This document shows positions 12,692 through 50,067 of a stretch of 60,090 nucleotides of DNA, one piece after another. A program made the position numbers and the translations under genes. The notes under the pieces are model-generated. The model worked only from the letters and a program-made list of their open reading frames with translations. It was not told the DNA's origin and did no database searches. Positions within the stretch are counted from its first letter, which is position 1. Every line of letters starts with the position of its first letter. Source of the DNA: a virus; the IMG/VR virus record IMGVR_UViG_3300006921_003877, positions 1 through 60,090 of that record, one strand, 5' to 3'.

Positions 12692-14605
12692 TTATCTTAA
12701 CTCATTAATACCAAATGTTACTACACCATCGACGTTGATAGTACCGTAGAATCTGTTGTTAACCATCTTCTTAGCGTATCTTGTCATTATACCTTTGATT
12801 GGTGCAAAGTTAAATGGATTATACATAGTAGGTGTAAGTTGTAACGGAACGTAAGGAGCGTATACATAACCAGTATCTAGTAATGATTTTCCTTTATGTC
12901 CAATTAATATCTTACCTGCTGGGAAGTAAGGATCTCTATATACAGTATATCTACCTGATAAAGAACCAATCTTCTCAATACCCATATTATAAGAATCTTG
13001 CTCTGGTGACGCGTTAGACACGTGGAAGTATTCTAAATCATCAAATATTGCAGAAACCTCAGCTGAACATACGATCCAGTTAGCTCCTCCTCTAAGAGTT
13101 GATTTATGAATTTGAGCAGATAATTGATTTACCGTAGTAATCAATGTTTGATTCCAATCTTTTTGAGTGTAAGCATTGTAACCTTGACCATTGTTAGATC
13201 TTCTCCAACCATTGTAGTCCCATCTTAACGTCCAAGCCGCACCATTTCTAAGGTCTTTCAAGATTTCTCTATCAATCTCAGCCGCAACTTGTTCTGATAA
13301 TAAAGCTGTTAATTCAGCCTCAGCATCAATGTTGTGGAATGCAGACACGTCTTGTGCAAGTTCAGGAGACCAAGTAGCTCTTAGTTTTCTTTCTGTTACC
13401 GCTACAGTTACAGAATCTAATCTAAATGTTACTTCAGCCATGTTATCTTCTAACTCCATGTTAGCGTAAGATAAAACCTGAGCCACAAGTCCTAAAGCTG
13501 ATGCAGTAGGTACACCCGCTGCCGCTATATAGTTAGCGTTGTTAGTAGCAGTAGAATCTGGATTACCATAACCTCTACCTTCAACAGTCGTACATGTTGG
13601 ACATGCTGGACAACCAAAGTCAATCTCGATTAACATGTTACCTGTACCTGCGTAAGGTGCTATTGTACTTCCAGATACAAGACCTTGACCGTACTTTTGT
13701 GTTACTGTTCTGTACTTTAATGGAGTACCACCAGATATCAACGGCATATCTAAAGCCGGATCAGTTATCGTACCACTATCAGCTGTACCACCATTTAATT
13801 GGTAAAGAGCAGCTGTTGAGAAAGTATCAGCAGATGTATTACAAGAAACCATTGGTCCTGCAATTGCGTCTCTCGCAGCAGTTGTAGCACTTAAGTAAAT
13901 TACTAAACCTGCTAAGAAAGCTTCAGTATCAGCTAATTGTCCATCAGGACCTACTAATGTTCCTGTAGTAGATAAGATAGAAGAAGAAATTAATCCTGTT
14001 ACGTATCTGTTAGCTGGATTACTTAACGGTACACCGTTTGTATCAGTTCTTCCTGAGAAAGTTCCAATATTTGGGTAAGCTGTTGACGCCACTGTTGTAA
14101 GTCCACCTGGAACTACAGTTACTGGAGTAACAGTTCTTTTACCTCTTGATGCATCAAATAATCCTCTCGCTGGAGAAGCGTTATTTTCATAGAATTGGTC
14201 ATATAAATCTACACCTGAAGGAGTAGAAGCATTGAATCCACCGTTAGTAGAGTCAAAACCAGGTCTGTTAGTAGATACCTCTGGTACAAAGTAGAATAAT
14301 TTACCAATTGGTAAGTTTAACGCTTGTACTGATACGATATCGTTAGCCAAAAGTTTAGAGAATACTCTCCTTACGATTGGGAATACAACTGTTTCGAAAG
14401 AACCTGAATCAGTTGCTGTTGTTTGTTCGTTGATTAAGTAAGACGCTTGATTCTCAAATAATTGAGCAACGTTGTCTTTACTATAACCATTTAGGCCATC
14501 TAGGAATCCTAGTTTGTCCCATTTGTTAATTACGTCTTCACGGATAAGTTTCATTGAATTAGTTCCAATGTTTCCAACTTGTCCTGAGTTTAATAAATGT
14601 CCCAT
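12692..14605 (-). CDS. 23: major capsid protein, T4 gp23-like
   Basis: 637 residues. The N-terminus (IREDVINKWDKLGFLDGL, then VAQLFENQASYLINEQ) and FPIVRRVFSKLLANDIVSVQAL are clear T4 gp23 family features, as is the C-terminal YTVYRDPYFPAGKILIGHKG. A gp21-type cleavage site I58-N59-E60 falls close to the T4 gp23 processing site (after E65), so the mature protein probably starts at Q61. A large insertion with CPACPTC lies mid-protein, probably surface exposed. It follows the scaffold gene by 22 bp, as in T4. Confidence 0.95.
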   Translation of the reverse strand: MGHLLNSGQVGNIGTNSMKLIREDVINKWDKLGFLDGLNGYSKDNVAQLFENQASYLINEQTTATDSGSFETVVFPIVRRVFSKLLANDIVSVQALNLPIGKLFYFVPEVSTNRPGFDSTNGGFNASTPSGVDLYDQFYENNASPARGLFDASRGKRTVTPVTVVPGGLTTVASTAYPNIGTFSGRTDTNGVPLSNPANRYVTGLISSSILSTTGTLVGPDGQLADTEAFLAGLVIYLSATTAARDAIAGPMVSCNTSADTFSTAALYQLNGGTADSGTITDPALDMPLISGGTPLKYRTVTQKYGQGLVSGSTIAPYAGTGNMLIEIDFGCPACPTCTTVEGRGYGNPDSTATNNANYIAAAGVPTASALGLVAQVLSYANMELEDNMAEVTFRLDSVTVAVTERKLRATWSPELAQDVSAFHNIDAEAELTALLSEQVAAEIDREILKDLRNGAAWTLRWDYNGWRRSNNGQGYNAYTQKDWNQTLITTVNQLSAQIHKSTLRGGANWIVCSAEVSAIFDDLEYFHVSNASPEQDSYNMGIEKIGSLSGRYTVYRDPYFPAGKILIGHKGKSLLDTGYVYAPYVPLQLTPTMYNPFNFAPIKGIMTRYAKKMVNNRFYGTINVDGVVTFGINELR

Positions 14606-18348: not shown

Positions 18349-19038
18349 TTAATCTTTTAAGAAATTTTTAATTGTTTTATTCAAATCTGACTCCATTATT
18401 TTTTGGGGTTTAACAGATTCTACGTAAGGTTTAGCTTCGTCTACTTGATTAAATAAATAAGCTCCAGGGGTTGAAGGTGAAGAAACCAAATCAAAACAGA
18501 TTAATTCAAAATCATCTTGTACCATATTTTGTCCATTTACACTTTGTAAAGAACCGACTCCTCTTGAGGATATACCTAATTGTACACCGTGTCTTAGTAG
18601 ATTAGCTGCTAAATCTCCGGGTGTTGTTGTAACTCCTGTATTTTCATAAGCAGGAGATGTAATTAAAGTTAACTTCCCCATTAGTGTATTTCCGTCCCAC
18701 CAAGTTTCGTCTAATTTGTGAGATGTTCTTTCTAAATCTATGATTGACGAGTCTGGATGGTTTAACTCGGAAATAGCTCTACCATTTTTTATCACCTCTT
18801 GGTGTTTATCCACTTCGTTTCTAAGAATATTTTCTGGATAAATTCTTCCATTTCTGTTTTGAACTCCACATTTTTGTAGTACAGCAACCATTTGAATCGG
18901 ACCATAGCTTGTTCCGACTTCATTCATCTCTTTTATAATTTTTTTATTTTCCGTGATTTGGGGTGATATATATCCGGAGTCTTTTTCGACTAAAAGTCCA
19001 TACCCCACTTCTCCTTCTTTAAGTAATTTAAGTTCCAT
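18349..19038 (-). CDS. 21: prohead core protease, T4 gp21-like
   Basis: 229 residues with the family hallmarks NRNGRIYP (61-68), ISELNHPD with the catalytic His at residue 94, LGISSRGVGS with the catalytic Ser at about 157-158, and FDLVSSPST. T4 gp21 matures the head by cutting capsid, scaffold and internal proteins after (L/I)xE. Many proteins here carry such sites near their N-termini, including the capsid protein (INE at 58-60). Two late-type boxes lie just upstream. Followed after 3 bp by the Cys-rich protein gene. Confidence 0.93.
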   Translation of the reverse strand: MELKLLKEGEVGYGLLVEKDSGYISPQITENKKIIKEMNEVGTSYGPIQMVAVLQKCGVQNRNGRIYPENILRNEVDKHQEVIKNGRAISELNHPDSSIIDLERTSHKLDETWWDGNTLMGKLTLITSPAYENTGVTTTPGDLAANLLRHGVQLGISSRGVGSLQSVNGQNMVQDDFELICFDLVSSPSTPGAYLFNQVDEAKPYVESVKPQKIMESDLNKTIKNFLKD

Positions 19039-33053: not shown

Positions 33054-35507
33054 ATGAAAGAATTAAAACCAATAAAAAATATTATTAGAGCAGGGTTAGA
33101 AGTTGCTAAAAGTTATGACGCTTCTTCTATCAGACCGGTCCATTTATTTATGGGTGTTATTAAACACGGTAATAATAGTTCGTGCGAATTATTATTAAAT
33201 TTAGGACTAGACTTAGACTCCATTGCAAATTTAGTACAAGAATTATTACATATAAATGAGTCCGAAAGTTCATTTACAAGCATTATACCTTTTACCACCG
33301 AAGCTCAAATGGTCTTAGATAATGTTAATGCCGAAAGATTACTACTAAAAGATAAGGAGGTTAACACCCACCATTTGACGCTTTCAATATTATTTCAAAA
33401 AAATGCGGCCATTACAAGATTTTTGTCTAAATTTGGGGTTGAATATAAAACGTATAAAAAAGAATTATTAAATATGAGTATGATGTATAACGAAGAGCCT
33501 TTTGGACAAAAGGATGACGGAACAAATAAAGCAGAACCTAAAGAAACAACAAATACACCAATTCTTGACAATTTTAGTAGAGATGTAAGTGCTGAAGCCA
33601 AAAAGGGTAATTTAGATAAAATTATTGGTAGATTATCTGAAGTTGAGCGTATTGCACAAATATTAAGTAGAAGAAAAAAGAACAATCCAGTTCTTATCGG
33701 TGAACCTGGAGTGGGTAAATCCTCAATCGTAGATGGATTAGCCATAAAAATTAATGATAAAAAATGTCCTAGACCTTTAATGGGTAAAAGAGTAGTATCA
33801 TTAGATTTAACCTCTCTTGTGGCTGGGACTAAATATAGAGGACAGTTTGAAGAACGAATAAAAGGACTTCTAGATGAAGTTAGGGGAGATAAAAATATTA
33901 TTCTTTTTATTGACGAACTTCACACTATGGTTGGTGCTGGGAATTCTTCAGGATCAATGGATGCAGCTAACATTCTTAAACCAGCCCTTTCAAGAGGAGA
34001 GATACAATGTATTGGGGCCACCACTTTGGATGAATATCGAGAACATATAGAAAAAGATGGGGCATTAGAGAGAAGATTCCAAAAAGTTATGGTGGAACCC
34101 CCTACTAAAAAACAAACTTTAACAATATTAGAAAATATAAAAGAAATATATGAAGATTACCATAAAGTGACTTACACTGACGAAGCAATAAAGACTTGTG
34201 TTGATTTATCAGAAAGATATATAACTGATAGAAATTTTCCTGATAAGGCTATTGATGTGTTAGATGAAGCTGGGGCTAGAGTTGCTGTTAGTATGAAACC
34301 TCCTAAAAATATAGAGTCTGTTGAGAAACAGATAGATAATGTAAAGGAAGAAAAGAATAAGGTTGTTCTGTCACAACAGTATGAGAAAGCGGCGAATCTT
34401 AGGGATAAAGAAAAAAACCTTAAGACTAAATTAAAGAAGTTTGTAACTGAATGGGAGGATCAACTACTAAAGGAAAGACCTATTGTCGACGAAGATGGTA
34501 TACTAGAAATTATTTCGATATCCACTAACATTCCGGTCACTAAACTAAATGAAGATGAGTCCCAAAAACTTTTAGATATAGACAAAGTACTTAAAGGGGC
34601 TATAATTGGTCAGGACATGGCAATAACAAAAGTTTGTAATTCTCTAAGACGTAATAGAGTTGGTATTAAAAACCCTAATAAACCTATTGGTAGTTTTATG
34701 TTTTTAGGTCCTACCGGAGTTGGTAAAACTGAATTGGCTAAACAATTGGCTCTTGAAGTTTTTGGAACAGAAGATAGTCTTATCCGAGTAGATATGTCAG
34801 AATACTCAGAAAAGTTCGCAGCAACTAAAATGATTGGTTCTCCTCCAGGATATGTTGGATATAATGAAGGTGGTCAACTAACCGAAAAGGTACGACGTAA
34901 ACCATATTCTCTAGTTCTATTTGATGAGGTGGAGAAAGCCCATCCGGATATTTTTCATTCCTTATTACAATTACTAGATGAGGGTTTTATGACAGATGGA
35001 ATGGGAAGAAAGATTAACTTTAGAAACTGTTTAATTGTAATGACCTCTAACATAGGAATGCGTGAAGTAGAAGAATTCGGTGCGGGTGTAGGTTTCCAAA
35101 CATCTAACCACGATGACCAATACAATGATCGCGTACAAACAATTATAGATAAAAACTTAAAAAAACAGTTTAATCCTGAATTTATTAATAGATTAGACGA
35201 TATTGTGATATTCAATAAGTTGGATAAAAAAGATATCGTGAAAATTCTAGATGTTCATTTAACTTTATTAAAAGAAAGAATGTTAGATATGGGGTATACG
35301 ATAAAAGTAAATAAAAGCGCTAAAGACTTAATTGTTGAAAAGGGATATAGTGATAAGTATGGTGCGAGACCAATGACTAGAGCCATATCTAATTATTTAG
35401 AGGATGCGATAGCAGAAGAAATGTTAAAATCTAAGGTCGAAAAGGGTTCAACCTTAGCCATTAGTTATGAGAAAAAAACAAATAAAGTCAAAGTTAAAGT
35501 AAGTTAG
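33054..35507 (+). CDS. clpC: ClpC-like AAA+ protein unfoldase
   Basis: 817 residues, full-length class 1 Hsp100. A Clp N-domain pair covers about 1-140. The first AAA+ module has Walker A GEPGVGKS (216-223), ILFIDE (283-288) and ALERRF. A short UVR-like middle segment (QQYEKAANLRDKEKNLKTKL, about 441-460) follows. The second module has GPTGVGKT (552-559) and VLFDE (621-625). VGF (679-681) lies where ClpA and ClpC carry the loop that docks ClpP, so it is a protease partner, not a ClpB disaggregase. No clpP gene is seen here, so host ClpP may be recruited. Confidence 0.93.
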   Translation: MKELKPIKNIIRAGLEVAKSYDASSIRPVHLFMGVIKHGNNSSCELLLNLGLDLDSIANLVQELLHINESESSFTSIIPFTTEAQMVLDNVNAERLLLKDKEVNTHHLTLSILFQKNAAITRFLSKFGVEYKTYKKELLNMSMMYNEEPFGQKDDGTNKAEPKETTNTPILDNFSRDVSAEAKKGNLDKIIGRLSEVERIAQILSRRKKNNPVLIGEPGVGKSSIVDGLAIKINDKKCPRPLMGKRVVSLDLTSLVAGTKYRGQFEERIKGLLDEVRGDKNIILFIDELHTMVGAGNSSGSMDAANILKPALSRGEIQCIGATTLDEYREHIEKDGALERRFQKVMVEPPTKKQTLTILENIKEIYEDYHKVTYTDEAIKTCVDLSERYITDRNFPDKAIDVLDEAGARVAVSMKPPKNIESVEKQIDNVKEEKNKVVLSQQYEKAANLRDKEKNLKTKLKKFVTEWEDQLLKERPIVDEDGILEIISISTNIPVTKLNEDESQKLLDIDKVLKGAIIGQDMAITKVCNSLRRNRVGIKNPNKPIGSFMFLGPTGVGKTELAKQLALEVFGTEDSLIRVDMSEYSEKFAATKMIGSPPGYVGYNEGGQLTEKVRRKPYSLVLFDEVEKAHPDIFHSLLQLLDEGFMTDGMGRKINFRNCLIVMTSNIGMREVEEFGAGVGFQTSNHDDQYNDRVQTIIDKNLKKQFNPEFINRLDDIVIFNKLDKKDIVKILDVHLTLLKERMLDMGYTIKVNKSAKDLIVEKGYSDKYGARPMTRAISNYLEDAIAEEMLKSKVEKGSTLAISYEKKTNKVKVKVS

Positions 35508-36498: not shown

Positions 36499-37125
36499 AT
36501 GGATAAAAAGACTTTTAGAACAATACTATCACTTTCATTATTGGGGTGTCTGTTATATTATACGATGACTCTTTCACAAAAGTTTCAATCAAAGGTAGAA
36601 AATTTAACAGAAGATTTAGTAAAAACCAAACAGGAATTTTATTGTACTATAAATAGTATTAATGAGATATACCAAAGTGCTTTAGATTCTTTACCTCTAG
36701 GTTCTCCTTTAGATACTATTTCCATTTCTTCTAATTATGGAATTAGGAGAGGTCCTTTAGGTGGTGGATGGAGAATGCACTCAGGTATTGATCTTAAAGG
36801 AACAAAATGGGATACCGTATTTGCGACCGGTAACGGATTCATCTCAATGGCCACTTGGAACGCGGGATATGGTAAATGTATAAAAATTGACCATATAGAA
36901 GGGTACTCGAGTAAATACGCCCACTTATCAAAAATATTTGTTAAAAAAGGAGATTTTGTTCTTAAAGGAATGCCATTAGGAAAATGTGGAAGTACTGGTG
37001 CTAGTACAGGACAACACTTACATTATGAAATAAACATCAACGGAAAAACTGTTGACCCTTACCTATTCTTGTTCTTTGATTCTATCCTTAAGGACCGCAA
37101 TAATACCTTCTTGGAAATTAAGTAA
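36499..37125 (+). CDS. membrane-anchored M23 (LytM) peptidoglycan endopeptidase
   Basis: 208 residues. An uncleaved signal-anchor helix (about 8-24, LSLSLLGCLLYYTMT) and a short coiled coil precede the catalytic domain. Zinc-site motifs are complete: H94-x3-D98 (MHSGID), H142 (KYAHLS) and H173-L-H175 (HLHYE). M23 enzymes cut peptide cross-links in peptidoglycan, so it is the likely lysis endopeptidase. The last 63 bp overlap, tail to tail, the DHH phosphoesterase gene on the other strand. Confidence 0.92.
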   Translation: MDKKTFRTILSLSLLGCLLYYTMTLSQKFQSKVENLTEDLVKTKQEFYCTINSINEIYQSALDSLPLGSPLDTISISSNYGIRRGPLGGGWRMHSGIDLKGTKWDTVFATGNGFISMATWNAGYGKCIKIDHIEGYSSKYAHLSKIFVKKGDFVLKGMPLGKCGSTGASTGQHLHYEININGKTVDPYLFLFFDSILKDRNNTFLEIK

Positions 37126-38466
37126 CATTTCTTTTCTCATTTCTTTAGGTAGATACATGATACCACTGATATTAGTTATACATTTATGTCCTCCTGAATT
37201 TGCTTGTATAATGTCCCAAGCAGAAACCCAACCTGATTTTAATATTTTTTGTTGTTTATCGGATAGTTTATTCTGAGGTTTATCCATTATATCCTTAAAA
37301 AGATTAGTATAACTAGAATCCTTTTCTAGATTTATCCCTCTAACTTTATCTCCATAAAAGGCCTTTAGATCAGCCAAACCAAAACCAGCACTAAATTCTT
37401 GTGTTTTACGTTCACTTGTCCATTTAATTCTATCTACTGTTATTTTTTCATTTTCTAAAACAGTTTTATATCGATTTAATACTTCTTGAGCAATATCACC
37501 TAAATTAATACCTTTTAGACTCCTCTCTTCCTTAAATGGATTACACGAAGCTTGTACTAAACCCATTGGCCAAGCAATTACAAAAAAGTTTGCATCGGGA
37601 TGGTTCTTAAATGGTACGTAACGATCATAAGATCCTGGTTTCATTAAATAACCACCACCATACTGTGAAATAATCCCATCCTCATATTTAACTTTTTCAC
37701 TATCTTTTTGTCTCTCGATATAATCTGTTTGGTTTTGTAACATTTCTTCTGGTGTTGCATAACCTTTTTCAGAAGCTATTTTTTTAATATTAATTAATAT
37801 GTTTAGTAGTGATGGTGAAGAATTCATAACTAAACTTTCTAAAAAATCAGGTTTATTTTTATAAGCTAAAAGTAATTTATTAGTCAGAAGTCCTATCATT
37901 TTTTTATTTTCAGAAGAAGATTTTTGTTTATCAATGTTTAACATAAAATTCATCACATCTTCTGGTTTAATACCGTGTTTTACAAAATCCGCTGAATCCA
38001 CTGCAGATATCATCGCTATATCTTCATTAGGGAAAATATCTTGGGGACTAACCACTTGAGAAATTGTTTCTACGTTAGAACGAGCTCCTCTAAATTGTGT
38101 AGACGTATCTTTTTCTACTCCTGATTGGGAGTCATGGTGATCGGTGTGGATTGTAAATTGAGGTTTGCCGTGAGCAAAATCAACAAGGACTGGCATAACA
38201 TCACCAGTAGCGTCTGGTTTTTTAACTTGGAATTCTTTTTCTCCGTATTGAATTACGTGTGAGTCTACCGTTTCGATGCCGTTATTTTTTAGGTATTCTC
38301 TCATTGCGATGGCCGTTGCCACCCCATCAGTATCCTGGTGAAAATATATCTCCGCCTTAGGATATCTTTGAGCCAATTTCTTAATATCCCTTATTCCAGT
38401 CTCAATAAGTAAGACTTCATTTATTATATCACCTATTTCTTGTTCTGTTAATTTTATACGTTCCAT
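37063..38466 (-). CDS. DHH-family phosphoesterase
   Basis: 467 residues. Motif I YFHQDTDGVATA (D45, D47), motif II VDFAHG and motif III HTDHHDS (D109-H110-H111) define the DHH superfamily (RecJ, NrnA/NrnB nanoRNases, c-di-NMP phosphodiesterases). The C-terminal part resembles a DHHA1-type substrate domain (GFGLADLKA..., NSGGHKCITNISG, with GGH). Likely substrates are short oligonucleotides or cyclic dinucleotides. The N-terminus MERIKLTEQEIGDIINE ends in INE (15-17), like a head-targeting tag. Its 3' end overlaps the M23 gene by 63 bp. Confidence 0.85.
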   Translation of the reverse strand: MERIKLTEQEIGDIINEVLLIETGIRDIKKLAQRYPKAEIYFHQDTDGVATAIAMREYLKNNGIETVDSHVIQYGEKEFQVKKPDATGDVMPVLVDFAHGKPQFTIHTDHHDSQSGVEKDTSTQFRGARSNVETISQVVSPQDIFPNEDIAMISAVDSADFVKHGIKPEDVMNFMLNIDKQKSSSENKKMIGLLTNKLLLAYKNKPDFLESLVMNSSPSLLNILINIKKIASEKGYATPEEMLQNQTDYIERQKDSEKVKYEDGIISQYGGGYLMKPGSYDRYVPFKNHPDANFFVIAWPMGLVQASCNPFKEERSLKGINLGDIAQEVLNRYKTVLENEKITVDRIKWTSERKTQEFSAGFGLADLKAFYGDKVRGINLEKDSSYTNLFKDIMDKPQNKLSDKQQKILKSGWVSAWDIIQANSGGHKCITNISGIMYLPKEMRKEMLLNFQEGIIAVLKDRIKEQE

Positions 38467-38502: not shown

Positions 38503-39558
38503 CTAAACCTCTTGTAACATATGGTTAGCCAAAGCACTCGACACAGTTTCTACTAATTTTTCTAGAATTAGATAGGGATCACCGTTACTAGCCGGTCTCC
38601 TATCTTCTAGATAACCTTTCCAGTTATTTTTTACTGTAGATATAGGAATACGTATACTAGACCCCCTATCACTAACTCCAAAACTAAACTTATCTATAGA
38701 TTGTGTTTCATGTAATCCTGTTAATCTTTTTTCATTGTTTGCACCATATACCTCGATATGTTCTTGGTGAAAAAATCCTAGACTTTCACAAATATCGGTA
38801 AAGAGTTTTTCTCCCCCCTTTTCTCTAGTTTCTTCTGTTGAAAAGTTCACATGCATTCCGGAACCGTTCCAATCACCTTCAACTGGTTTAGGGGATAGAT
38901 TAACAACCACTTGATATCTCTCCATTAACTTTATAAGAAGGTATCTGGAGATTATTAATTCGTCTGCGGACCTTAAAGTATTTTTAGACATTAATTGGTA
39001 TTCCCACTGACCTATCATAACTTCCGCATTAACCCCTGTAATATTTAACCCCGCCTCTAAACAGGTGTCCATATGTTCCTCAACTAAATCTCTCCCTTCT
39101 ACGTTATTGGTACCAAGGGCACAATAGTAGGGTCCTTGAGGTCTCGGATATCCTATTGCCGGAAAACCTAAAGGTTTATCCTGTATATTAGTTAAAACAT
39201 ATTCCTGTTCAAAAGCAAACCAGAACCTATGTTTATCAGCAATTTTACTTTTTTCTCTTAATTTATGTCTAGTATTTGTTTCATGGGGACTCCAATCAGG
39301 ATTTAGTACTTCACATAAAACTATAAATCCCCCATCTCTTGTAGGGTCTTTCACAATATAAACTGGTTGTAATAAACAATCGGAATTTTCTCCTGTTGCT
39401 TGTAATGTAGAACTACCATCAAAAGACCACACTGGTAAGTTTTCCACTTTAAGTCCATCTTCTATATCACCACTATCTATGATCTTTGTTTTACTTCTAA
39501 TATTTTGTTCTGGATTATATCCATCCAACCAAATATACTCTAGTTTAATCTTACTCAT
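38503..39558 (-). CDS. glnII: glutamine synthetase, class II (GSII)
   Basis: 351 residues, the length of eukaryote-type GSII, far shorter than GSI or GSIII. Motifs: WSFDGSST (44-51), NPDWSPHETNTR, FEQEY with metal Glu (116-120), NAEVMIGQWEYQ (177-188), GDWNGSGMH (228-236), NEKRLTGLHET (275-285) and EDRRPASN (318-325). All metal and substrate residues I can place are present, so an active ATP-dependent glutamate-ammonia ligase is expected. Glutamine feeds purine and pyrimidine synthesis and amino sugars. It lies between the DHH gene and an unknown protein, with only a degenerate box upstream. Confidence 0.95.
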   Translation of the reverse strand: MSKIKLEYIWLDGYNPEQNIRSKTKIIDSGDIEDGLKVENLPVWSFDGSSTLQATGENSDCLLQPVYIVKDPTRDGGFIVLCEVLNPDWSPHETNTRHKLREKSKIADKHRFWFAFEQEYVLTNIQDKPLGFPAIGYPRPQGPYYCALGTNNVEGRDLVEEHMDTCLEAGLNITGVNAEVMIGQWEYQLMSKNTLRSADELIISRYLLIKLMERYQVVVNLSPKPVEGDWNGSGMHVNFSTEETREKGGEKLFTDICESLGFFHQEHIEVYGANNEKRLTGLHETQSIDKFSFGVSDRGSSIRIPISTVKNNWKGYLEDRRPASNGDPYLILEKLVETVSSALANHMLQEV

Positions 39559-39628: not shown

Positions 39629-40609
39629 TTATTTGAATTTACCTTCTACTTCTATTTCCCACCCTTTTCCTTGGGAATCCACGAAGTCATGAAAATCTTT
39701 TAATTTGTATTCACCGAACTCTTCAAAAGGAATATCCTTACTGGAGGCACTTGAGTTGGTGTCGATGCGAGCAACTTTACCTAAAGGACTTAACCAAATT
39801 AAATAAATTTTTGAGGTGTTACCCCACCCTCCAGGTTTTGTTAACCTAATTTTATTAAACATTTTTTTGAATTTCTCAAACATTTCATCTGGAAATCTCC
39901 TATTTCTTTTTGTTCCCCCTCCTACAAAATGTTCCCTTAAAAACGCCTCTTCTAAAGGGCTATTTTTTTTGAATTTCGATTTCAACTTTTCAAGTATATT
40001 AGCAAATGCCTCACCAACAGTTATAGTTCCTAAATAAGCTAACATTCTTGTGACTATGTCCTCCACTTGATCAATACTACCTCCCATATTCAACATAATT
40101 TCGGACAAGGTTGTAATAACTGGTACAATAAAGGCAAACCCCATAATTTTCGATAATCCTCTTACTGTCATACCAGCAGTACGAAGTATATTCTCCATTA
40201 AACTTTCAAAACTACTTACAAATGATAAAACCTTATTAAACGCCTTGGAAAGTCCTTCATCTTTAAGGGTTTTTACAAGATTAACTATTTCCGTCTTATT
40301 ACCAAAGACAATTACCCCTACGGCCGCAATTGTAAGTGCCACTATCTGGATTTCATTTAAGTTAGGAAATTCCCCCGCTATTAATTCTGAAGTAGGACCC
40401 ACAAGTGCGGTAATACCCGCACCATAAGTAAACATAAAAGTTAAATCCATACCAAACTGATCACCTACTTTTTTTATTAGGTTTTTATCGGTGTATGGGT
40501 CACTTTTCATAAACTCGTGTAGATATTCCTCATGAAGAGACTTCAAAAGTTTTTCATTCTGTCCATTTAATAGTCTAAGTTGTTCCTCTGTTATTATAAT
40601 TTTACTCAT
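39629..40609 (-). CDS. hypothetical protein with hydrophobic helices, probable head-targeted
   Basis: 326 residues. N-terminus MSKIIITEEQLRLLNGQNEK with LHE sites at 25-27 and 30-32. The middle (about 52-230) has hydrophobic helices (FMFTYGAGITALVGPTSELI, IVALTIAAVGVIVFG, MGFAFIVPVITTLSEIML) that could insert in a membrane or pack as a helical bundle. The C-terminus is a soluble domain (KIYLIWLSPLGKVARIDTNS). Its start overlaps the stop of the 1546-residue gene by one base, so they are coupled and possibly partners. Confidence 0.65.
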   Translation of the reverse strand: MSKIIITEEQLRLLNGQNEKLLKSLHEEYLHEFMKSDPYTDKNLIKKVGDQFGMDLTFMFTYGAGITALVGPTSELIAGEFPNLNEIQIVALTIAAVGVIVFGNKTEIVNLVKTLKDEGLSKAFNKVLSFVSSFESLMENILRTAGMTVRGLSKIMGFAFIVPVITTLSEIMLNMGGSIDQVEDIVTRMLAYLGTITVGEAFANILEKLKSKFKKNSPLEEAFLREHFVGGGTKRNRRFPDEMFEKFKKMFNKIRLTKPGGWGNTSKIYLIWLSPLGKVARIDTNSSASSKDIPFEEFGEYKLKDFHDFVDSQGKGWEIEVEGKFK

Positions 40610-43600
40610 TACACATCGATTAATTCAATTTTATCCCCTATCTTTATATTATAATTATCCACACCACCACTAACAAGTTCTAAAGCTTGGTTTCCATTTA
40701 CATTACCATAATTTTCACATTGTTGTTCTTCACAAGGTTGTACATCTTTATCATAGTCAACCACTTCCCCATCTACCATATAAATTATATCTAACGGTAA
40801 AAAAGTATTTTTCATCCACATTGATATCGGTACTATGTCGTCCCATAAAAATAACATTCCTCGATTGTTCGGGTAAGAAGTTTTATACATCATACCTTTA
40901 TTTTTTAGGAATGCTGTGTCCGCAACATCTAACTGTATTTCTTTCCCGTTTACTATTGCTCTAGGGTCATTATACGGTTTTTCAAATCTTTCATTTAATT
41001 TATTCCTATCTTTAGGGAAACGATAAATGTCTGCGTCAGGAAGTAACGCCATAGGTGTTAAACTTTCAGGTCCCATAATCCAGTTTACTAAAATTTTATA
41101 AGCGAAATCTCCAGGCTTACCCTCAAATCCCATTACAACTCCTTTTGTTTTAACTGGGATACTATAAGGGTCATCCATGTAGAGTAGTTCAATAACGTCA
41201 CCTTCTACCACATCTGGATTAAGATCTGGATTATCCTCTACATTATCCATTCCTTGGTGTTCATTCATTTTAACAGGTATGTTAAACGGTCCCTTATCTA
41301 GTCTTGGTTTAAGTATAGTTTTTTTAACTTTTTTTGAACCTTGTGGTATTGATGTTTCGCCTTCTTCTGGTGAAATATCGGATAAGTGAACATTACCCCT
41401 GTGTTGGTGAATAATATCAAAACCATCGTCCTTATATAAATCTGTGTTACCTATATTATCACTCCCGTCTAGGGTGAAGAATCCTCCTTGTTCTCCTGTA
41501 TGTTTTTTCTGGTCGTCTCCAACACCTTCTGTTATTTTAGGTATCTCTACTCTCCTCTCCAGTTCTCCAGCATCTTGGATGTTTGAATCGTATGCCTCAT
41601 AATCTCCCCAATCATAAGTTTCCAAGTCACCACCCCAATCATGAAATTCAGTATGACCTTTTTCTTCGGCATCCTCATTATCAAATGCAAGTACTTCTGC
41701 ACTACCGGACTTGTACTCAACCTGTGACCCTGTCTCATCCATATCCACGTTATAATATTTAATCATATTTCTTTCGGGGTCTTCCATAGTGTAGTCTCCT
41801 TCTTCGTTCCAATTATCTAAAGCGTATTTTGCGTATTGAGTTGATACTGCGGCTTGTTCTATTGACCTAGTCGGTATCCCAAACATTTTCATAAGTTTGG
41901 ACCATTTTTTACTTATGTCTCCATATTGTGGTGTTTCAGTTGTTAACTTTTCAAGTTCGTCTTTAGTGAAATTTTTATGTATGTGTTTTATTATTAAAAG
42001 TTCTCCTTTATCAAATTCTCTATTAGTAAAAAATCCATAGTCTTCATTAATCGTTCTATCTTCGGTTGGTTTCAAGTCCTCTACCTCGATACCCCTTTTT
42101 GGTTGTAAAGGTGGCTCCAATAAAAACTTTTGGTTTAGGTAATCCCTTAATAAATTCTCAACAAACCAATCTGGAACTGGTTCATTATCTGGTCGTGTTG
42201 CCGCAACATCTGCAACATATCTAGCAAACTTTAATTTATACTTATCCTTAATCATCTGAAGTAGTCCGTCAGATACAAAAAATACTTTTCCTAATGGGTC
42301 ATCCCCTAAAGCAACGTCTGGTATATAATCACCCTCTGCTATGTCCATGGCTTTAAGTACTACCTTACCCCACCATGATTTATAACCTCTGGTGTCTTTA
42401 AGTGCTGGTGTAACCATTTTATTAATTGCTCTAGTTGCGGTAACACCAACGGCTGCTAATAATATTTGTGGTATAAAAAATGGTATGATTCTCCACAGTG
42501 TCTTGAAAGCACCTCGTCCCATGTCTGCAGCAATTCTTTTTTTAGTTGCCGTTTCAACTAAAGCCTTAAGTTGTCCAAAGGTTATTGGTCCTTGTTCTTG
42601 ACAGAAACCTTCCACTGTACAGATATTATCTGTAACTTCTTTAGAAGGGGCAACAAAACCTTTAGCTGGATCCGTTTCACCACCAGTATAAACATATTCA
42701 TCTTCTTCTTTCTCTTCAGGTTCGTTTAGTTTCATTAACTCTTCCCATTCTTCATCACTTCCTTCAAATTCCTCAGGTTCGATAGGATCCATTAAACCTT
42801 GTCCAAAAATATCAGTTTCCTCATCAATTTGCTCCTTTTCTTCATATGGAGTTACATCAAATTCATATTGTAACTCATGTAATCTATCATTAAGTGATTC
42901 ATTAATATCATAATTAGGATAATAGTAGTTACTAAAAAACTTTGAGTCGGGTTCTAGTAAATCTCCTCTTTTACCATAATCATAATCTTCGAAGGTAAAT
43001 TCTTCTAATATAAGTGAGGAGAATATCGCCATAGGTAGGTTATCTTCTATTGAATTGTCCGATAACCAATCTTCTAAAGTTGTTCCTCTATAGTCTGGAT
43101 GAAATTCATATACATCTATATTGTCCCACATATCGTCTTCCAACCAATTTAATAAATTATCTTTAATCGTCCAACTGTATCTACCATTGTCATCTTTTTC
43201 TAATTTACCGTGATTCTGAAAATGTTCTGCTAATTTATCTATAACATCATCAGCCATATCTTTTTTGGTTGCCCATTCTGCCTCGTCATTATGGGACCAC
43301 ATTATACGAGACCTGATTTCACTAATTATTTCTTCTTTTTCTTCCGCTAATATATCTTCCTCCTCTGTTTGTGATCTTAAATTAATTAAGTTTTCTGCAA
43401 CATCTTTATCCTTAACACCTAGAATGTGCGTTATTAGTTTCCAATTTTTATCGTCCAAATCATCAGACATACCATCATACCAATCAGTGTCATACCAATT
43501 ATCATAGTCTTGCCATTCATAATCACCACATAAAAATTCTTTAATATAATCTACACTATAATCTCTAGAGTCTTTAATAAACATATTCGCTAGATCATCA

Positions 43601-45249
43601 CAATCAAAACTATAGGAAACTGGAATCGGTTTCATTGTATTTTTAAGATATCTTTTTACCAACATCACTCTAACTGTCGCATTGTGTGTTGGTATTCCCA
43701 GTAATTTCAAATCATCAAAATTTATACCAGTTTTATCCCATTTTTTGAATAAGAACGTAACCGCTTGGTCTGATACTTCTTCTTTAACCCAGTCTACTGT
43801 CTCTTGGTCACCCCCTGCAATAATTTCTCCGTTTTCTTGTTCAAAATCTTCATACCCAACAGGAAATTCAAATTCTCCAATTGGTGTTGGTAAATCTAAT
43901 TCCATTTGTTCTTGTTCATTTAATTCAATTGTTTGTCCGGTATCTATACCACCCGTTGTTTCTCCCAAATCAACTAGGGCCAATTTTCCATTTTTCATTC
44001 CTAAATTATCAATACCAATATCACTCCAACTAATACCATGTTGTGTCAATTCTTGTCTAATCATTAATAGATTTTTGTGTAATTTTTCACATTCTTCTTT
44101 TCCATTAACAGGGGGGTTAATAATCGCTGGGGTTTCGTTGTATTCAATATAAATTGGTTTATTAACTCCACAACAACAATTTTCAAATGTTTCAGCCATT
44201 CGTTTTGGTAATCCTAATTCTTCCATAATAATGATATATCCCTCACCATTAACAATGTGTGATGAATCTAATTTCCCACTCTCGAAAACATCGGCTATAT
44301 ATTTATTTTGTTTTCCTTTAAGGGTGTTAGCTGTTTCGTATTCACTCTTATCTCCTGTTAGTTTAATAACATTTCCTTTTGACGTGAAATAAGCGGTACC
44401 ATTTCCTCCTAACATTTCATCTACTACTTTTCCATAACCTTTCTGTTTAGCTAATTTATCCACTAACACTCTAGGTTCAACGTCAAATTGTAATTCCTTA
44501 TAACCACCCACATAAAAATCTCTATCATTATAAGGGTCAAATTCTAAAGAATCTAATACGTCTTTTCTTTGTTCGGGATTATTACGGTATTGTTGGTCGA
44601 TGGCGTATTTTATTTCTGTATCGATTTCTTCTCTAATAAGATCAACATCACCATATGTTCTATAAAAACTTAATAAAACCGCTAAAAGATTTTCTGAATT
44701 ACTACCACCTATACTCCAGTAATCAATTTCATCCGGTTCCAACTCATATTGCTTATAATCATAAATAAATGTAGGACCGACTTTCATTTCTCCCATATCG
44801 TCAAAGATTATGGACCATTCCATTTTAGTTTTACCACCACTATCTCCAAAATCAAACTGACCATAAGTTGACAGTCCAAACACCCCCTCAATCTCTATCA
44901 TTTGAACACCGTCAAGTTCTCCGACTCTGTGGGTCCCAGCACCTCCTTGGTCTTGTACTTTATATCCTGGAGCAACAACTGGATTAATATCTCCATTTGT
45001 TAATTCCTCACCACTTTTGTTTTGATTTAGATACATCATATAACCATAGTAAAAACCCATTCCTGTTTTACCATAGAGTTTTAACATATTATCAAGTTTT
45101 TCCCACCAAGATTCACTTATGAAAGTCATGTTCTCAGCATAGGTGCTGTCATATAAATTAAAAGCCTCAATCAATATCTTTTTATCGATATCTTCTACAG
45201 GGAACGTATGCGGTCCAACACTGACATTTTCTTTATTGTGATTTCTCAT
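40609..45249 (-). CDS. giant protein: kinase-like domain plus C-terminal DUF192
   Basis: 1546 residues, one of the two longest genes here. Residues about 270-430 read as a protein-kinase-like fold: Gly-rich GGNGTAY (281-287), K296 in VIKL, E305, catalytic-loop ISWSDIGIDNLG with D410 and N415 (D+5 = N as in HRDLKPEN), and ALVDLG with D427 in place of DFG. Acidic, Trp/Tyr-rich helices fill about 500-860. A single hydrophobic stretch (FFIPQILLAAVGVTATRAI) lies at about 924-942. Residues 1430-1546 are a DUF192 domain (GMMYKTSY, RGMLFLWD, MWMKNTFLPLDIIYM, PC...C). An LIE site at 26-28 may mark a head-targeting tag. Role unknown. Confidence 0.85.
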   Translation of the reverse strand: MRNHNKENVSVGPHTFPVEDIDKKILIEAFNLYDSTYAENMTFISESWWEKLDNMLKLYGKTGMGFYYGYMMYLNQNKSGEELTNGDINPVVAPGYKVQDQGGAGTHRVGELDGVQMIEIEGVFGLSTYGQFDFGDSGGKTKMEWSIIFDDMGEMKVGPTFIYDYKQYELEPDEIDYWSIGGSNSENLLAVLLSFYRTYGDVDLIREEIDTEIKYAIDQQYRNNPEQRKDVLDSLEFDPYNDRDFYVGGYKELQFDVEPRVLVDKLAKQKGYGKVVDEMLGGNGTAYFTSKGNVIKLTGDKSEYETANTLKGKQNKYIADVFESGKLDSSHIVNGEGYIIIMEELGLPKRMAETFENCCCGVNKPIYIEYNETPAIINPPVNGKEECEKLHKNLLMIRQELTQHGISWSDIGIDNLGMKNGKLALVDLGETTGGIDTGQTIELNEQEQMELDLPTPIGEFEFPVGYEDFEQENGEIIAGGDQETVDWVKEEVSDQAVTFLFKKWDKTGINFDDLKLLGIPTHNATVRVMLVKRYLKNTMKPIPVSYSFDCDDLANMFIKDSRDYSVDYIKEFLCGDYEWQDYDNWYDTDWYDGMSDDLDDKNWKLITHILGVKDKDVAENLINLRSQTEEEDILAEEKEEIISEIRSRIMWSHNDEAEWATKKDMADDVIDKLAEHFQNHGKLEKDDNGRYSWTIKDNLLNWLEDDMWDNIDVYEFHPDYRGTTLEDWLSDNSIEDNLPMAIFSSLILEEFTFEDYDYGKRGDLLEPDSKFFSNYYYPNYDINESLNDRLHELQYEFDVTPYEEKEQIDEETDIFGQGLMDPIEPEEFEGSDEEWEELMKLNEPEEKEEDEYVYTGGETDPAKGFVAPSKEVTDNICTVEGFCQEQGPITFGQLKALVETATKKRIAADMGRGAFKTLWRIIPFFIPQILLAAVGVTATRAINKMVTPALKDTRGYKSWWGKVVLKAMDIAEGDYIPDVALGDDPLGKVFFVSDGLLQMIKDKYKLKFARYVADVAATRPDNEPVPDWFVENLLRDYLNQKFLLEPPLQPKRGIEVEDLKPTEDRTINEDYGFFTNREFDKGELLIIKHIHKNFTKDELEKLTTETPQYGDISKKWSKLMKMFGIPTRSIEQAAVSTQYAKYALDNWNEEGDYTMEDPERNMIKYYNVDMDETGSQVEYKSGSAEVLAFDNEDAEEKGHTEFHDWGGDLETYDWGDYEAYDSNIQDAGELERRVEIPKITEGVGDDQKKHTGEQGGFFTLDGSDNIGNTDLYKDDGFDIIHQHRGNVHLSDISPEEGETSIPQGSKKVKKTILKPRLDKGPFNIPVKMNEHQGMDNVEDNPDLNPDVVEGDVIELLYMDDPYSIPVKTKGVVMGFEGKPGDFAYKILVNWIMGPESLTPMALLPDADIYRFPKDRNKLNERFEKPYNDPRAIVNGKEIQLDVADTAFLKNKGMMYKTSYPNNRGMLFLWDDIVPISMWMKNTFLPLDIIYMVDGEVVDYDKDVQPCEEQQCENYGNVNGNQALELVSGGVDNYNIKIGDKIELIDV

Positions 45250-45253
45250 ATTA

Positions 45254-45261
45254 TATAAATA
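45254..45261 (-). promoter_or_regulatory. late-promoter-like TATTTATA box
   Basis: AGTATTTATATAATATG on the - strand, 4 bases before the ATG of the 1546-residue gene. Confidence 0.65.
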
Positions 45262-45275
45262 CTAAAAGAACGCAA

Positions 45276-46521: not shown

Positions 46522-46550
46522 AAAAAAGGGACCTAAGTCCCTTTTTTTTT
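46522..46550. terminator. bidirectional terminator
   Basis: A6-GGGAC-CTAA-GTCCC-T9 hairpin between convergent genes; the T-run overlaps the stop of the Pro/Lys-rich gene. Confidence 0.9.
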
Positions 46551-47106
46551 AATCTTTTTTCTTTTTATTTCTAATCTTTTTCCTAGTCTTCTGATTTGCT
46601 CGTTTAACTCCTTTTGTACTTTTAGTCTTAACAGGACCTTTATTAAACTTTCCTTTACCAAAACGAGACGATCCTTTCGACCCCAACCCAGGTATATTCC
46701 CCATTGGGAGTACGTAATCCCCCTTCAGTGATTTACCGGAAGGTTTTGTCGTTTTAGTGATTTGTGTTTTAGTCTTTGCCTTAGGTGATGGTTTTGGCGC
46801 TGGTGGTTTTGGCGCTGGTGGTTTTGGCGCTGGTGGTTTTGGTTTTGGCTTTGGCTTCAAACCTGGTTTTGGTGCTGGTGCTTTGTTATGTTCACTCCAA
46901 TGTGCGAAATCTTTTTGGTAACCTGGATCTTTTGAACCACCCTTATACGTTTTTTCATCCGGAGCTTTAGAACCTGGACCAAACGGCTCGGCTTTACCGT
47001 GTTTATCGTGTTCACCCATTATAGGTTTTTGGTATAGAGAACCATTCATACCCATGAGTTGTCTCATACGAGCCAATTCTTCTCTTAAAATATCGTTATT
47101 TTTCAT
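46549..47106 (-). CDS. Pro/Lys-rich basic protein, probable internal head protein
   Basis: 185 residues, extremely basic. The N-terminus MKNNDILREELARMRQLMG has an LRE site (7-9). A tandem KPPAP repeat (three 15-bp units on the DNA, about 46798-46842) lies inside a Lys/Pro stretch, and the last 50 residues are Lys/Arg/Gly-rich. A strongly basic packaged protein would neutralise genome charge, as proposed for the T4 internal proteins. Overlaps the upstream gene by 11 bp. Confidence 0.65.
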   Translation of the reverse strand: MKNNDILREELARMRQLMGMNGSLYQKPIMGEHDKHGKAEPFGPGSKAPDEKTYKGGSKDPGYQKDFAHWSEHNKAPAPKPGLKPKPKPKPPAPKPPAPKPPAPKPSPKAKTKTQITKTTKPSGKSLKGDYVLPMGNIPGLGSKGSSRFGKGKFNKGPVKTKSTKGVKRANQKTRKKIRNKKKKD

Positions 47107-48993: not shown

Positions 48994-50067
48994 CTAAAAT
49001 ACTCTATAATTTATTCCCGCACTAAATCCATGCCACTGTCTGTTCCAATACTTATTGTATGTTCCTTCTATAAATACTCCTAAATTTTTATTAAACCAAT
49101 GACCCAATATAATTCCACCAGAGTAATCAACCCATTGACCACCATTAAAATTGTAATAACTAAATTCATTTTTATCATCACTATAGTGTAATGGCATCAT
49201 ATTACCCCATGCGTGTAACCAACTAGTTTTTGAATATTTGTAATAGTCGAATCCAGCAATCCATGAATAATTCCATTGATCGGGTAATTCATTTCTTTTC
49301 TTTTCTGTGTAATTAGATAAAACTTCTGGAATGACCACAGCTTCCCAAACTTCAGTACTTGTTGCTACCTCATTACCGGATGGGTTGAAGTAGGTTTCAC
49401 CTCCCATTCCATCAAACTCAACACTGTAACCTTCTTGTAACGCTAAATGAGTATAATGTAAATTACCATTAGATAATAACCATTCTTCTAAGGGATCGTA
49501 CCCATATGGTTCGGCAATTCTCTGAGCAATCCCTATATTTAAGGATAATCCATCAAGTTTTGGAAATTTATATGTGTATCTTTGGGAAGCCTCAAAGTAT
49601 TCCACATCCGCAAACCCATCCTTAACATATTCAATTTTTGCTAACCACTTATCTGCAACATATCTTACAAAATGTTTTTGGTCGAAATAATTCCCTCCTT
49701 GTTGTCTTTTTAATTCACCTTGGAATAAAAACTCTACTTTATTTGTCCATCTACCAATCGTTGATCCATCTGAAAACGATGTTTCTGTCCCTCTCTTAAA
49801 AGCTTCCTTAGGTTGGTACCCAAACTGCCTAATTTTTCTTACACCTATTAATATAGAGTAATCAAATGGAGTCTTAATTGTTGAGGTTTCTAACCCATCA
49901 GTGACTGAGTAGATATCCTGATCGGATATTGAATTTGCCCCGTTAACCGCACCATATACTGTACCAAACTTAAAAAATTCTTTTAGATTTAATTCTTTTA
50001 AGTTTAACTCTTGTGCGTTAAGTTGTAAGCTTATTATTGTTAATGTTAGTAATATTATTTTCCTCAT
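48994..50067 (-). CDS. exported outer-membrane beta-barrel-like protein
   Basis: 357 residues. Signal peptide MRKIILLTLTIISLQLNAQ with cleavage before E. The mature part is rich in aromatic, alternating strands (WTNKVEFLFQGELKRQ, KWLAKIEYVKDGFADVEYF, DYSGGIILGHWF, LGVFIEGTYNKYW) and ends with GFSAGINYRVF, the C-terminal aromatic typical of outer-membrane barrels. The ATGA overlap with the T9SS protein gene (50064-50067) couples the two. A surface receptor-blocking or remodelling role is inferred. Confidence 0.7.
   Translation of the reverse strand: MRKIILLTLTIISLQLNAQELNLKELNLKEFFKFGTVYGAVNGANSISDQDIYSVTDGLETSTIKTPFDYSILIGVRKIRQFGYQPKEAFKRGTETSFSDGSTIGRWTNKVEFLFQGELKRQQGGNYFDQKHFVRYVADKWLAKIEYVKDGFADVEYFEASQRYTYKFPKLDGLSLNIGIAQRIAEPYGYDPLEEWLLSNGNLHYTHLALQEGYSVEFDGMGGETYFNPSGNEVATSTEVWEAVVIPEVLSNYTEKKRNELPDQWNYSWIAGFDYYKYSKTSWLHAWGNMMPLHYSDDKNEFSYYNFNGGQWVDYSGGIILGHWFNKNLGVFIEGTYNKYWNRQWHGFSAGINYRVF

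What the first reader, a model, noticed from the sequence alone, without database searches (positions are those of the whole stretch)
40609..45249. Giant 1546-residue protein joins a protein-kinase-like domain to DUF192
Residues 281-427 contain a Gly-rich loop, K296, E305, D410/N415 (D+5=N) and DLG (D427) with an 18-residue-class spacing between catalytic D and DxG, all in kinase order. The C-terminal 115 residues are a clear DUF192. I know of no described phage protein with this pair. If active and packaged, it could phosphorylate host or virion proteins.
Basis: partly seen in the sequence, partly recalled or inferred. Interest (0 to 1): 0.8.

Follow-up and report, generated by a model that had tools for sequence, protein, structure and literature searches.

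The report
Cut-apart phage polyprotein carrying kinase-like module
A large virus of marine bacteria (probably Bacteroidota) makes one 1,546-residue protein that joins a kinase-like domain, a DUF192 domain and five or more other modules; related viruses carry these modules on separate genes, and the joints bear the cutting signal of the virus's own head protease, so it is probably a string of head-packed proteins cut apart during assembly rather than one giant enzyme.

Summary
ORF 40609-45249(-) has a DUF192 C-terminus (Pfam E 4e-23) and, at residues 205-430, a kinase-like domain. No sequence library detects the kinase, but six homologues down to 39% identity keep the GGNG loop, K296, D410, N415 and D427-LG. 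An AlphaFold model (pLDDT 62) has kinase topology, and 49 of the 50 best PDB matches are protein kinases (best E 6e-4). E305 is not conserved; E303 is. The domain ends just after DLG, with no αF-αI.

The two-enzyme reading is replaced. Seven modules of this protein are reshuffled across different giant ORFs in related 190-232-kb phages; DUF192 is a gene of its own in three. The flanks of these modules carry [LI]xE|Q (18 in 1310 aa versus 0 in 3561 aa inside modules; 1.3 expected by shuffling). The capsid protein has LINE|Q close to the T4 gp23 cleavage position, and the window encodes a T4-type prohead protease (E 2e-27). The gene has the same promoter-like motif as portal, terminase and protease.

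Best reading: a late, capsid-internal precursor, like "polyvalent proteins", cut by the prohead protease into separate, probably ejected, proteins. Cutting, packaging and kinase activity are inferred.

The parts
40609..45249 (-). 1546-aa precursor ORF (P0001)
   Evidence: open ORF; orthologues L001 and L007; dN/dS 0.16
45255..45262 (-). late-promoter-like motif GTATTTAT, 13 nt upstream of the start codon
   Evidence: same motif upstream of terminase, portal, protease and other genes; 'late' is inferred
44635..45249 (-). N-terminal module, residues 1-205, function unknown; contains LIE|A (25-27) and ISE|S (44-46)
   Evidence: conserved only in G001
43960..44637 (-). kinase-like domain without the late C-lobe helices, residues 205-430 (GGNG 281-284, K296, E303, D410, N415, D427-LG)
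43912..43923 (-). candidate cleavage site LNE|Q, residues 443-446, right after the kinase
   Evidence: T4 gp21 consensus L/I-X-E (PMC9026906)
42871..43812 (-). module B, residues 480-793, acidic, function unknown
   Evidence: in five relatives; AF2 pLDDT 81 but no PDB fold match
42100..42585 (-). module C, residues 889-1050, with a hydrophobic stretch at 918-942; stand-alone protein in megaphages; absent from G001
42040..42051 (-). candidate cleavage site INE|D, residues 1067-1070
41578..42018 (-). module D, residues 1078-1224, the most widely reshuffled module
   Evidence: about ten occurrences in five relatives and the window
41524..41535 (-). candidate cleavage site ITE|G, residues 1239-1242
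41224..41493 (-). module E, residues 1253-1342
   Evidence: in a 436-aa ORF of G003
41020..41232 (-). module F, residues 1340-1410, short domain of the 'NPDLxxGDxIxVxD' type
   Evidence: in a 521-aa ORF of G002
40987..40998 (-). candidate cleavage site LNE|R, residues 1418-1421 (INE|Q in G001), just before DUF192
40624..40938 (-). DUF192 domain, residues 1438-1542
   Evidence: PF02643 E 4e-23; stand-alone 113-138-aa ORF in G003, G004, G005
18349..19038 (-). T4-type prohead protease (S77)
   Evidence: PF03420 E 2e-27; PDB 5jbl E 5e-15, conserved GxxSRGxGSL segment aligned
12692..14605 (-). major capsid protein, gp23 type
   Evidence: PF07068 E 5e-71
14423..14434 (-). INE|Q (of LINE|Q) in the capsid protein, residues 58-61, about 7 residues from the T4 gp23 maturation position
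   Evidence: LINE|A in G002

Best explanation
The ORF encodes a late, capsid-internal polyprotein of a T4-related jumbo phage, probably of a Bacteroidota host. It strings together an N-terminal module, a C-lobe-less kinase-like domain, modules B to F and DUF192. During head assembly the phage's gp21-type prohead protease cuts after [LI]xE in the linkers (LNE443, INE1067, ITE1239, LNE1418) and frees the modules as separate proteins. These stay in the head and are probably ejected with the DNA. There the kinase-like piece would use ATP to phosphorylate a host protein or small molecule early in infection. Shown by computation: domains, reshuffling, site enrichment, protease, shared promoter-like motif. 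Inferred: cleavage, packaging, ejection, enzymatic activity and its target.
For: Modules lie in different ORFs in G002-G005. [LI]xEQ: 18 in 1310 aa of module flanks versus 0 in 3561 aa inside modules, Fisher p 5e-11; other residues at P3 or P1 show nothing. Shuffled linkers give 1.3; 18 of 33 linkers have a site, one each. The plain T4 consensus [LI]xE gives 48 versus 25. Proteome-wide [LI]xEQ excess of 2.2-2.7 fold in G001, G002 and G003, 1.8 in the window and G005, with the controls near expectation. The signal is at amino-acid level: 29 different 12-mers among 34 sites, X variable. The capsid protein has LINE|Q or LINE|A at about the T4 gp23 site. Protease encoded. T4 gp21 cuts after L/I-X-E (PMC9026906) and cuts Alt at ITE-6 and LTE-619 (PMC5694885). 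Kinase. Promoter-like motif shared with head genes.
Against: No proteomics or N-terminal sequencing. In the window protein alone the sites are few (LNE|Q once; [LI][NTSK]E 4 versus 0.8 in linkers, P 0.008; [LI]xE not enriched), and the B-C and E-F joints lack a clear site. The P1' Gln was noticed in the data before testing. A blind test on BLAST edges is significant for all genomes together but weak for G001+G002 alone. G003 and G005 show the sites but no detectable S77 protease or confident gp23 on their contigs, which may be incomplete. The kinase model is low confidence (pLDDT 62, TM about 0.35).
Confidence: 0.62

Rival explanations
1. The protein is an intact, uncut polyvalent protein: one long chain, packed and ejected whole (as phage N4 virion RNA polymerase is), with kinase and DUF192 acting as domains of a single molecule.
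For: Fusion conserved in G001 and L001; polyvalent proteins of 2-15 domains are known and N4 vRNAP is packaged unprocessed (PMC5512222).
Against: Protease-type sites concentrated in linkers and absent inside modules; a gp21-type protease is present; the modules are encoded apart in relatives.
Confidence: 0.2
2. The protein is a structural or neck/tail-associated virion component, or an intracellular late protein, and the kinase-like domain is a non-catalytic binding module (pseudokinase).
For: Missing late C-lobe helices; Gly in place of the catalytic-loop Lys; no function tested; low-confidence model.
Against: Loop glycines, K296, E303, D410, N415 and D427 all invariant at 39-45% identity; dN/dS 0.09; PolyVal kinases also lack the C-terminal subdomain but keep the active site (PMC5512222).
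Confidence: 0.15
3. The [LI]xEQ motifs are not protease sites but marks of module shuffling (a recombination-prone DNA sequence) or a composition effect of acidic linkers.
For: Modules are clearly shuffled; linkers are rich in E and Q.
Against: Linker shuffles give 1.3 against 18 observed; [LI]xDQ, [LI]xNQ and [VMFYWAT]xEQ show no excess; flanking DNA is not conserved; the same motif is near the capsid maturation position.
Confidence: 0.08

Closest known systems
Phage-type polyvalent proteins (Iyer et al. 2017, PMC5512222), including C-lobe-less kinases (Pfam PF18762 Kinase-PolyVal)
   Same: Very long multi-domain phage proteins near virion genes; reshuffled modules; a kinase domain that keeps its active site but lacks the C-terminal subdomain; reported from phages of Bacteroidetes among others
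   Different: PF18762 does not match; no embedded metallopeptidase was recognised in this protein; the proposed cutting is in trans by the prohead protease; modules B-F match no Pfam family
T4 Alt and internal proteins, cut by gp21 after L/I-X-E
   Same: T4-type protease and capsid protein encoded; the same consensus at the capsid position and in linkers
   Different: T4 Alt loses end pieces at ITE-6 and LTE-619; here several unrelated modules would be freed from one chain
Ejection proteins of giant phages phiKZ and SPN3US
   Same: Large phages whose head proteins are cut after a short xXE motif by a gp21 relative
   Different: Their motif is S/A-X-E or A-X-E and the mapped cuts produce mainly N-terminal propeptides (PMC10052503), not module separation
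Cyanophage T4-GC119 proteins with DUF192 (S-SM2 SSM2_109, SynMITS9220M01_097, Bellamy gp123)
   Same: DUF192 inside a long multi-part protein; beside the terminase gene in S-SM2 and SynMITS9220M01
   Different: No kinase-like domain recognised; other parts unrelated

Membership tests
DUF192 (PF02643) | Pfam score above gathering cut-off | tested here: met
   81.8 bits against 27; 1438-1542
Protein kinase-like fold | Gly loop, VxK Lys, helix-C Glu, catalytic Asp, Asn at +5 and DxG conserved in homologues | tested here: met
   invariant in six sequences; Glu is E303, not E305
Protein kinase-like fold | N-lobe sheet and helix order with fold match to kinases | tested here: met
   topology, 49 of top 50 PDB matches kinases, best E 6e-4; model confidence low
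Canonical two-lobed protein kinase | C-lobe helices aF-aI and APE region after DxG | tested here: not met
   homologue in G002 ends about 30 aa after DLG; no helix or strand predicted after position 221 of the model
Kinase-PolyVal (PF18762) | match to the Pfam model | tested here: not met
   no match at E 10 in G000-G005
Phage polyvalent proteins | long chain of multiple unrelated domains, encoded near virion genes, shuffled between relatives | tested here: met
Phage polyvalent proteins | packaged in and injected from the virion | not testable with these tools
   needs proteomics or an injection assay
gp21-type prohead protease substrate | L/I-X-E sites at processed junctions, protease present | tested here: met
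   for the family; weak for the window protein alone
gp21-type prohead protease substrate | observed cleavage | not testable with these tools
   experiment needed

The most novel reading that the evidence does not exclude
These T4-related jumbo phages make true capsid polyproteins: their prohead protease, besides maturing the shell, cuts giant chains into a set of separate ejected enzymes (kinase-like, DUF192, and in relatives PPK2, PAP2-phosphatase and zeta-toxin-like modules), with an [LI]xE|Q tag at the joints that lets modules be swapped freely between carriers.
Probability: 0.5. Interest if true: 0.82.

Novelty: new variant of a known kind. Interest (0 to 1): 0.63.

Why it matters
If true, it gives a simple rule ([LI]xE|Q in linkers plus a gp21-type protease) for predicting which proteins large T4-like phages carry into the cell, and how one chain is turned into many cargo proteins. 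It would link the 'polyvalent protein' idea to prohead proteolysis, and make the cargo of uncultured jumbo phages readable from sequence. No paper describing prohead-protease-cut polyvalent proteins was found in the held library, which lacks many subscription journals.

Tried and rejected
Sequence searches for the kinase in Pfam, PHROGs, NCBIfam and PDB gave only chance hits (RecX, eL19, ASF1). tblastn with the kinase region in 50,697 phage records gave nothing. One genome-contig scan gave no relative; the method needs shared short peptides, so it shows little. Kinase + DUF192 as a functional pair was rejected (encoded apart in relatives). Assembly-artefact fusion was rejected (G001). A DNA-level shuffling element was rejected. 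Module B was modelled well (pLDDT 81) but has no PDB fold match. The BLAST-edge test restricted to G001+G002 was not significant for [LI]NE. The S77 and gp23 search in G003-G005 gave no confident hit, unresolved.

Full report
The ORF at 40609-45249 on the minus strand encodes 1546 residues. Its last 105 residues are DUF192 beyond doubt (PF02643, E 4e-23). Residues 281-427 carry kinase-like motifs as stated: GGNG 281-284, K296, D410, N415, D427. The window is a 60,090-base IMG/VR virus fragment. The fusion is genuine: an independent 231-kb contig (G001, locus L007) has the same order at about 80% identity, and L001 covers residues 375-1546 at 91%.

Is the kinase real? No sequence library finds it. 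Degenerate-pattern scans found distant homologues in four further contigs (G002-G005), and an alignment-based scan found no others. The AlphaFold model from six sequences is of modest confidence (pLDDT 62, pTM 0.62) but has the kinase order of strands and helices, up to β8 and DLG. Of the best 50 PDB matches, 49 are protein kinases by title (best E 6e-4; p38, JNK, CDPK4, Mps1, PknB), the other being a chain of an axoneme assembly. The best viral matches are uncharacterised marine phage proteins (E 1.5e-7) and named phage and eukaryotic-virus kinases. After DLG the chain has only a short tail: in G002 the protein itself ends there. So this is a kinase-like domain without αF-αI. A group of such C-lobe-less kinases is described in polyvalent proteins (PMC5512222), but the Pfam model of that group does not match. 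Whether the substrate is protein or a small molecule is open, since the catalytic-loop Lys is Gly (DIGIDN).

The surroundings. The same strand carries gp23-type capsid protein (12692-14605), a T4-type prohead protease (18349-19038, PF03420 E 2e-27; PDB 5jbl E 5e-15), portal and terminase. Many ORFs have the motif RTATTTATA, often 13 or 24-25 nt before the start codon, among them portal, terminase, protease and the giant gene (13 nt). This suggests shared, probably late, transcription. A Por secretion tail domain and TAnnTTTG-like upstream motifs in relatives point to a Bacteroidota host; this is an inference.

The modules are portable. In G002 (232 kb) the kinase is the C-terminus of a 1317-aa ORF, module B lies in a 1426-aa ORF, modules C and D in a 1787-aa ORF and module F in a 521-aa ORF. 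In G003 and G005 the kinase is the N-terminus of another giant ORF, and DUF192 is its own 113-115-aa gene. G004 has it as a 138-aa open frame. In G003 the kinase ORF also carries PPK2 (E 3e-71), and other giants carry PAP2 phosphatase and zeta-toxin/AAA_33 domains. Module C is a stand-alone protein in 635-735-kb megaphages. So kinase and DUF192 are two passengers on one carrier, not a pair.

The joints. T4 gp21 cuts after L/I-X-E (PMC9026906) and trims Alt at ITE-6 and LTE-619 (PMC5694885). In the window's capsid protein, LINE|Q lies close to the T4 gp23 maturation position: 11 residues before the conserved segment starts, against 18 in T4 (my count); G002 has LINE|A. The linkers between modules have the same signal. 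In the non-redundant set G001+G002+G003, [LI]xEQ occurs 18 times in 1310 aa of module flanks and never in 3561 aa inside modules (p 5e-11); [LI]xE[QASGN] 31 versus 7 (p 3e-12); controls with other residues at P3 or P1 show no excess. Shuffling the linkers themselves gives 1.3 expected, and 18 of 33 linkers hold exactly one. Proteome-wide, [LI]xEQ is in excess in all five phages while [VMFYWAT]xEQ and [LI]xDQ stay near expectation. The DNA at the sites is diverse (29 of 34 twelve-mers distinct), so the constraint is on amino acids. In the window protein: LNE|Q 443 after the kinase, INE|D 1067 before D, ITE|G 1239 after D, LNE|R 1418 (INE|Q in G001) before DUF192. Linkers of unrelated sequence carry a site at the same place, e.g. 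INE|D in the window and LKE|G or LFE|Q in G001 before module D.

Limits. Q at P1' was noticed before it was tested; the a priori [LI]xE test is weaker but positive (48 versus 25). The window protein alone is not decisive. The relatives are few and not independent. A blind edge test is positive overall and for three genomes, but not for [LI]NE in G001+G002 alone. G003 and G005 show no S77 protease or confident gp23 hit. Nothing here is experimental.

Verdict. Observation confirmed, with one residue corrected. Interpretation partly supported: kinase-like yes, canonical two-lobed kinase no, kinase-DUF192 pair no. Best reading: a late capsid polyprotein of the polyvalent kind, cut by the prohead protease. 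I give about 0.9 to the kinase-like fold, 0.75 to cutting at the linkers, 0.55 to ejection taken alone, and 0.62 to the account in its main lines (judgements, not computed).

Noticed in passing
window, 22 genes, e.g. 45255-45262(-): Promoter-like motif RTATTTATA, mostly 13 or 24-25 nt upstream of start codons; 14 of 17 occurrences of ATATTTAT in the window lie upstream of ORFs. Candidate late promoter of these phages.
   Followed up: partly
L111:7832-12835 (G003), L040 (G004): The kinase-like domain is followed in the same ORF by a PPK2 polyphosphate kinase domain (E 3e-71); G004 also seems to carry a peptidoglycan-binding-like stretch (read by eye).
   Followed up: partly
L093:5839-11199, L121:13137-15950, L111:17123-19999: Other module-bearing giant ORFs carry zeta-toxin/AAA_33 and PAP2 phosphatase domains, and a HEXXH-like stretch by eye.
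   Followed up: partly
window 38503-39558(-): Glutamine-synthetase-like protein (PF00120 E 2e-17, PF03951 E 9e-12) next to the giant gene, conserved in G001.
   Followed up: no
window 50064-54125(-): 1353-aa protein with a Por secretion-system sorting domain at the C-terminus (E 7e-14): unusual for a phage, suggests Bacteroidota host.
   Followed up: no
window 33054-35507(+): ClpC-like ATPase/protease subunit (phrog_4871 E 7e-245), conserved in G001.
   Followed up: no
L006:4053-6050; L123:1954-4080: DUF192 inside a multi-part protein beside the terminase gene in cyanophages (T4-GC119).
   Followed up: partly
window protein residues 358-360 and 387: A CCC triplet and one further Cys are invariant in all six kinase homologues; possible metal site or disulfide, unexplained.
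   Followed up: no
N-termini of many window ORFs, e.g. 39629-40609(-), 37063-38466(-), 46549-47106(-): Short charged N-terminal peptides with [LI]xE (MSKIIITEEQL, MERIKLTEQEI, MKNNDILREEL), resembling T4 capsid-targeting sequences; [LI]xEQ is biased to the first 60 residues.
   Followed up: partly
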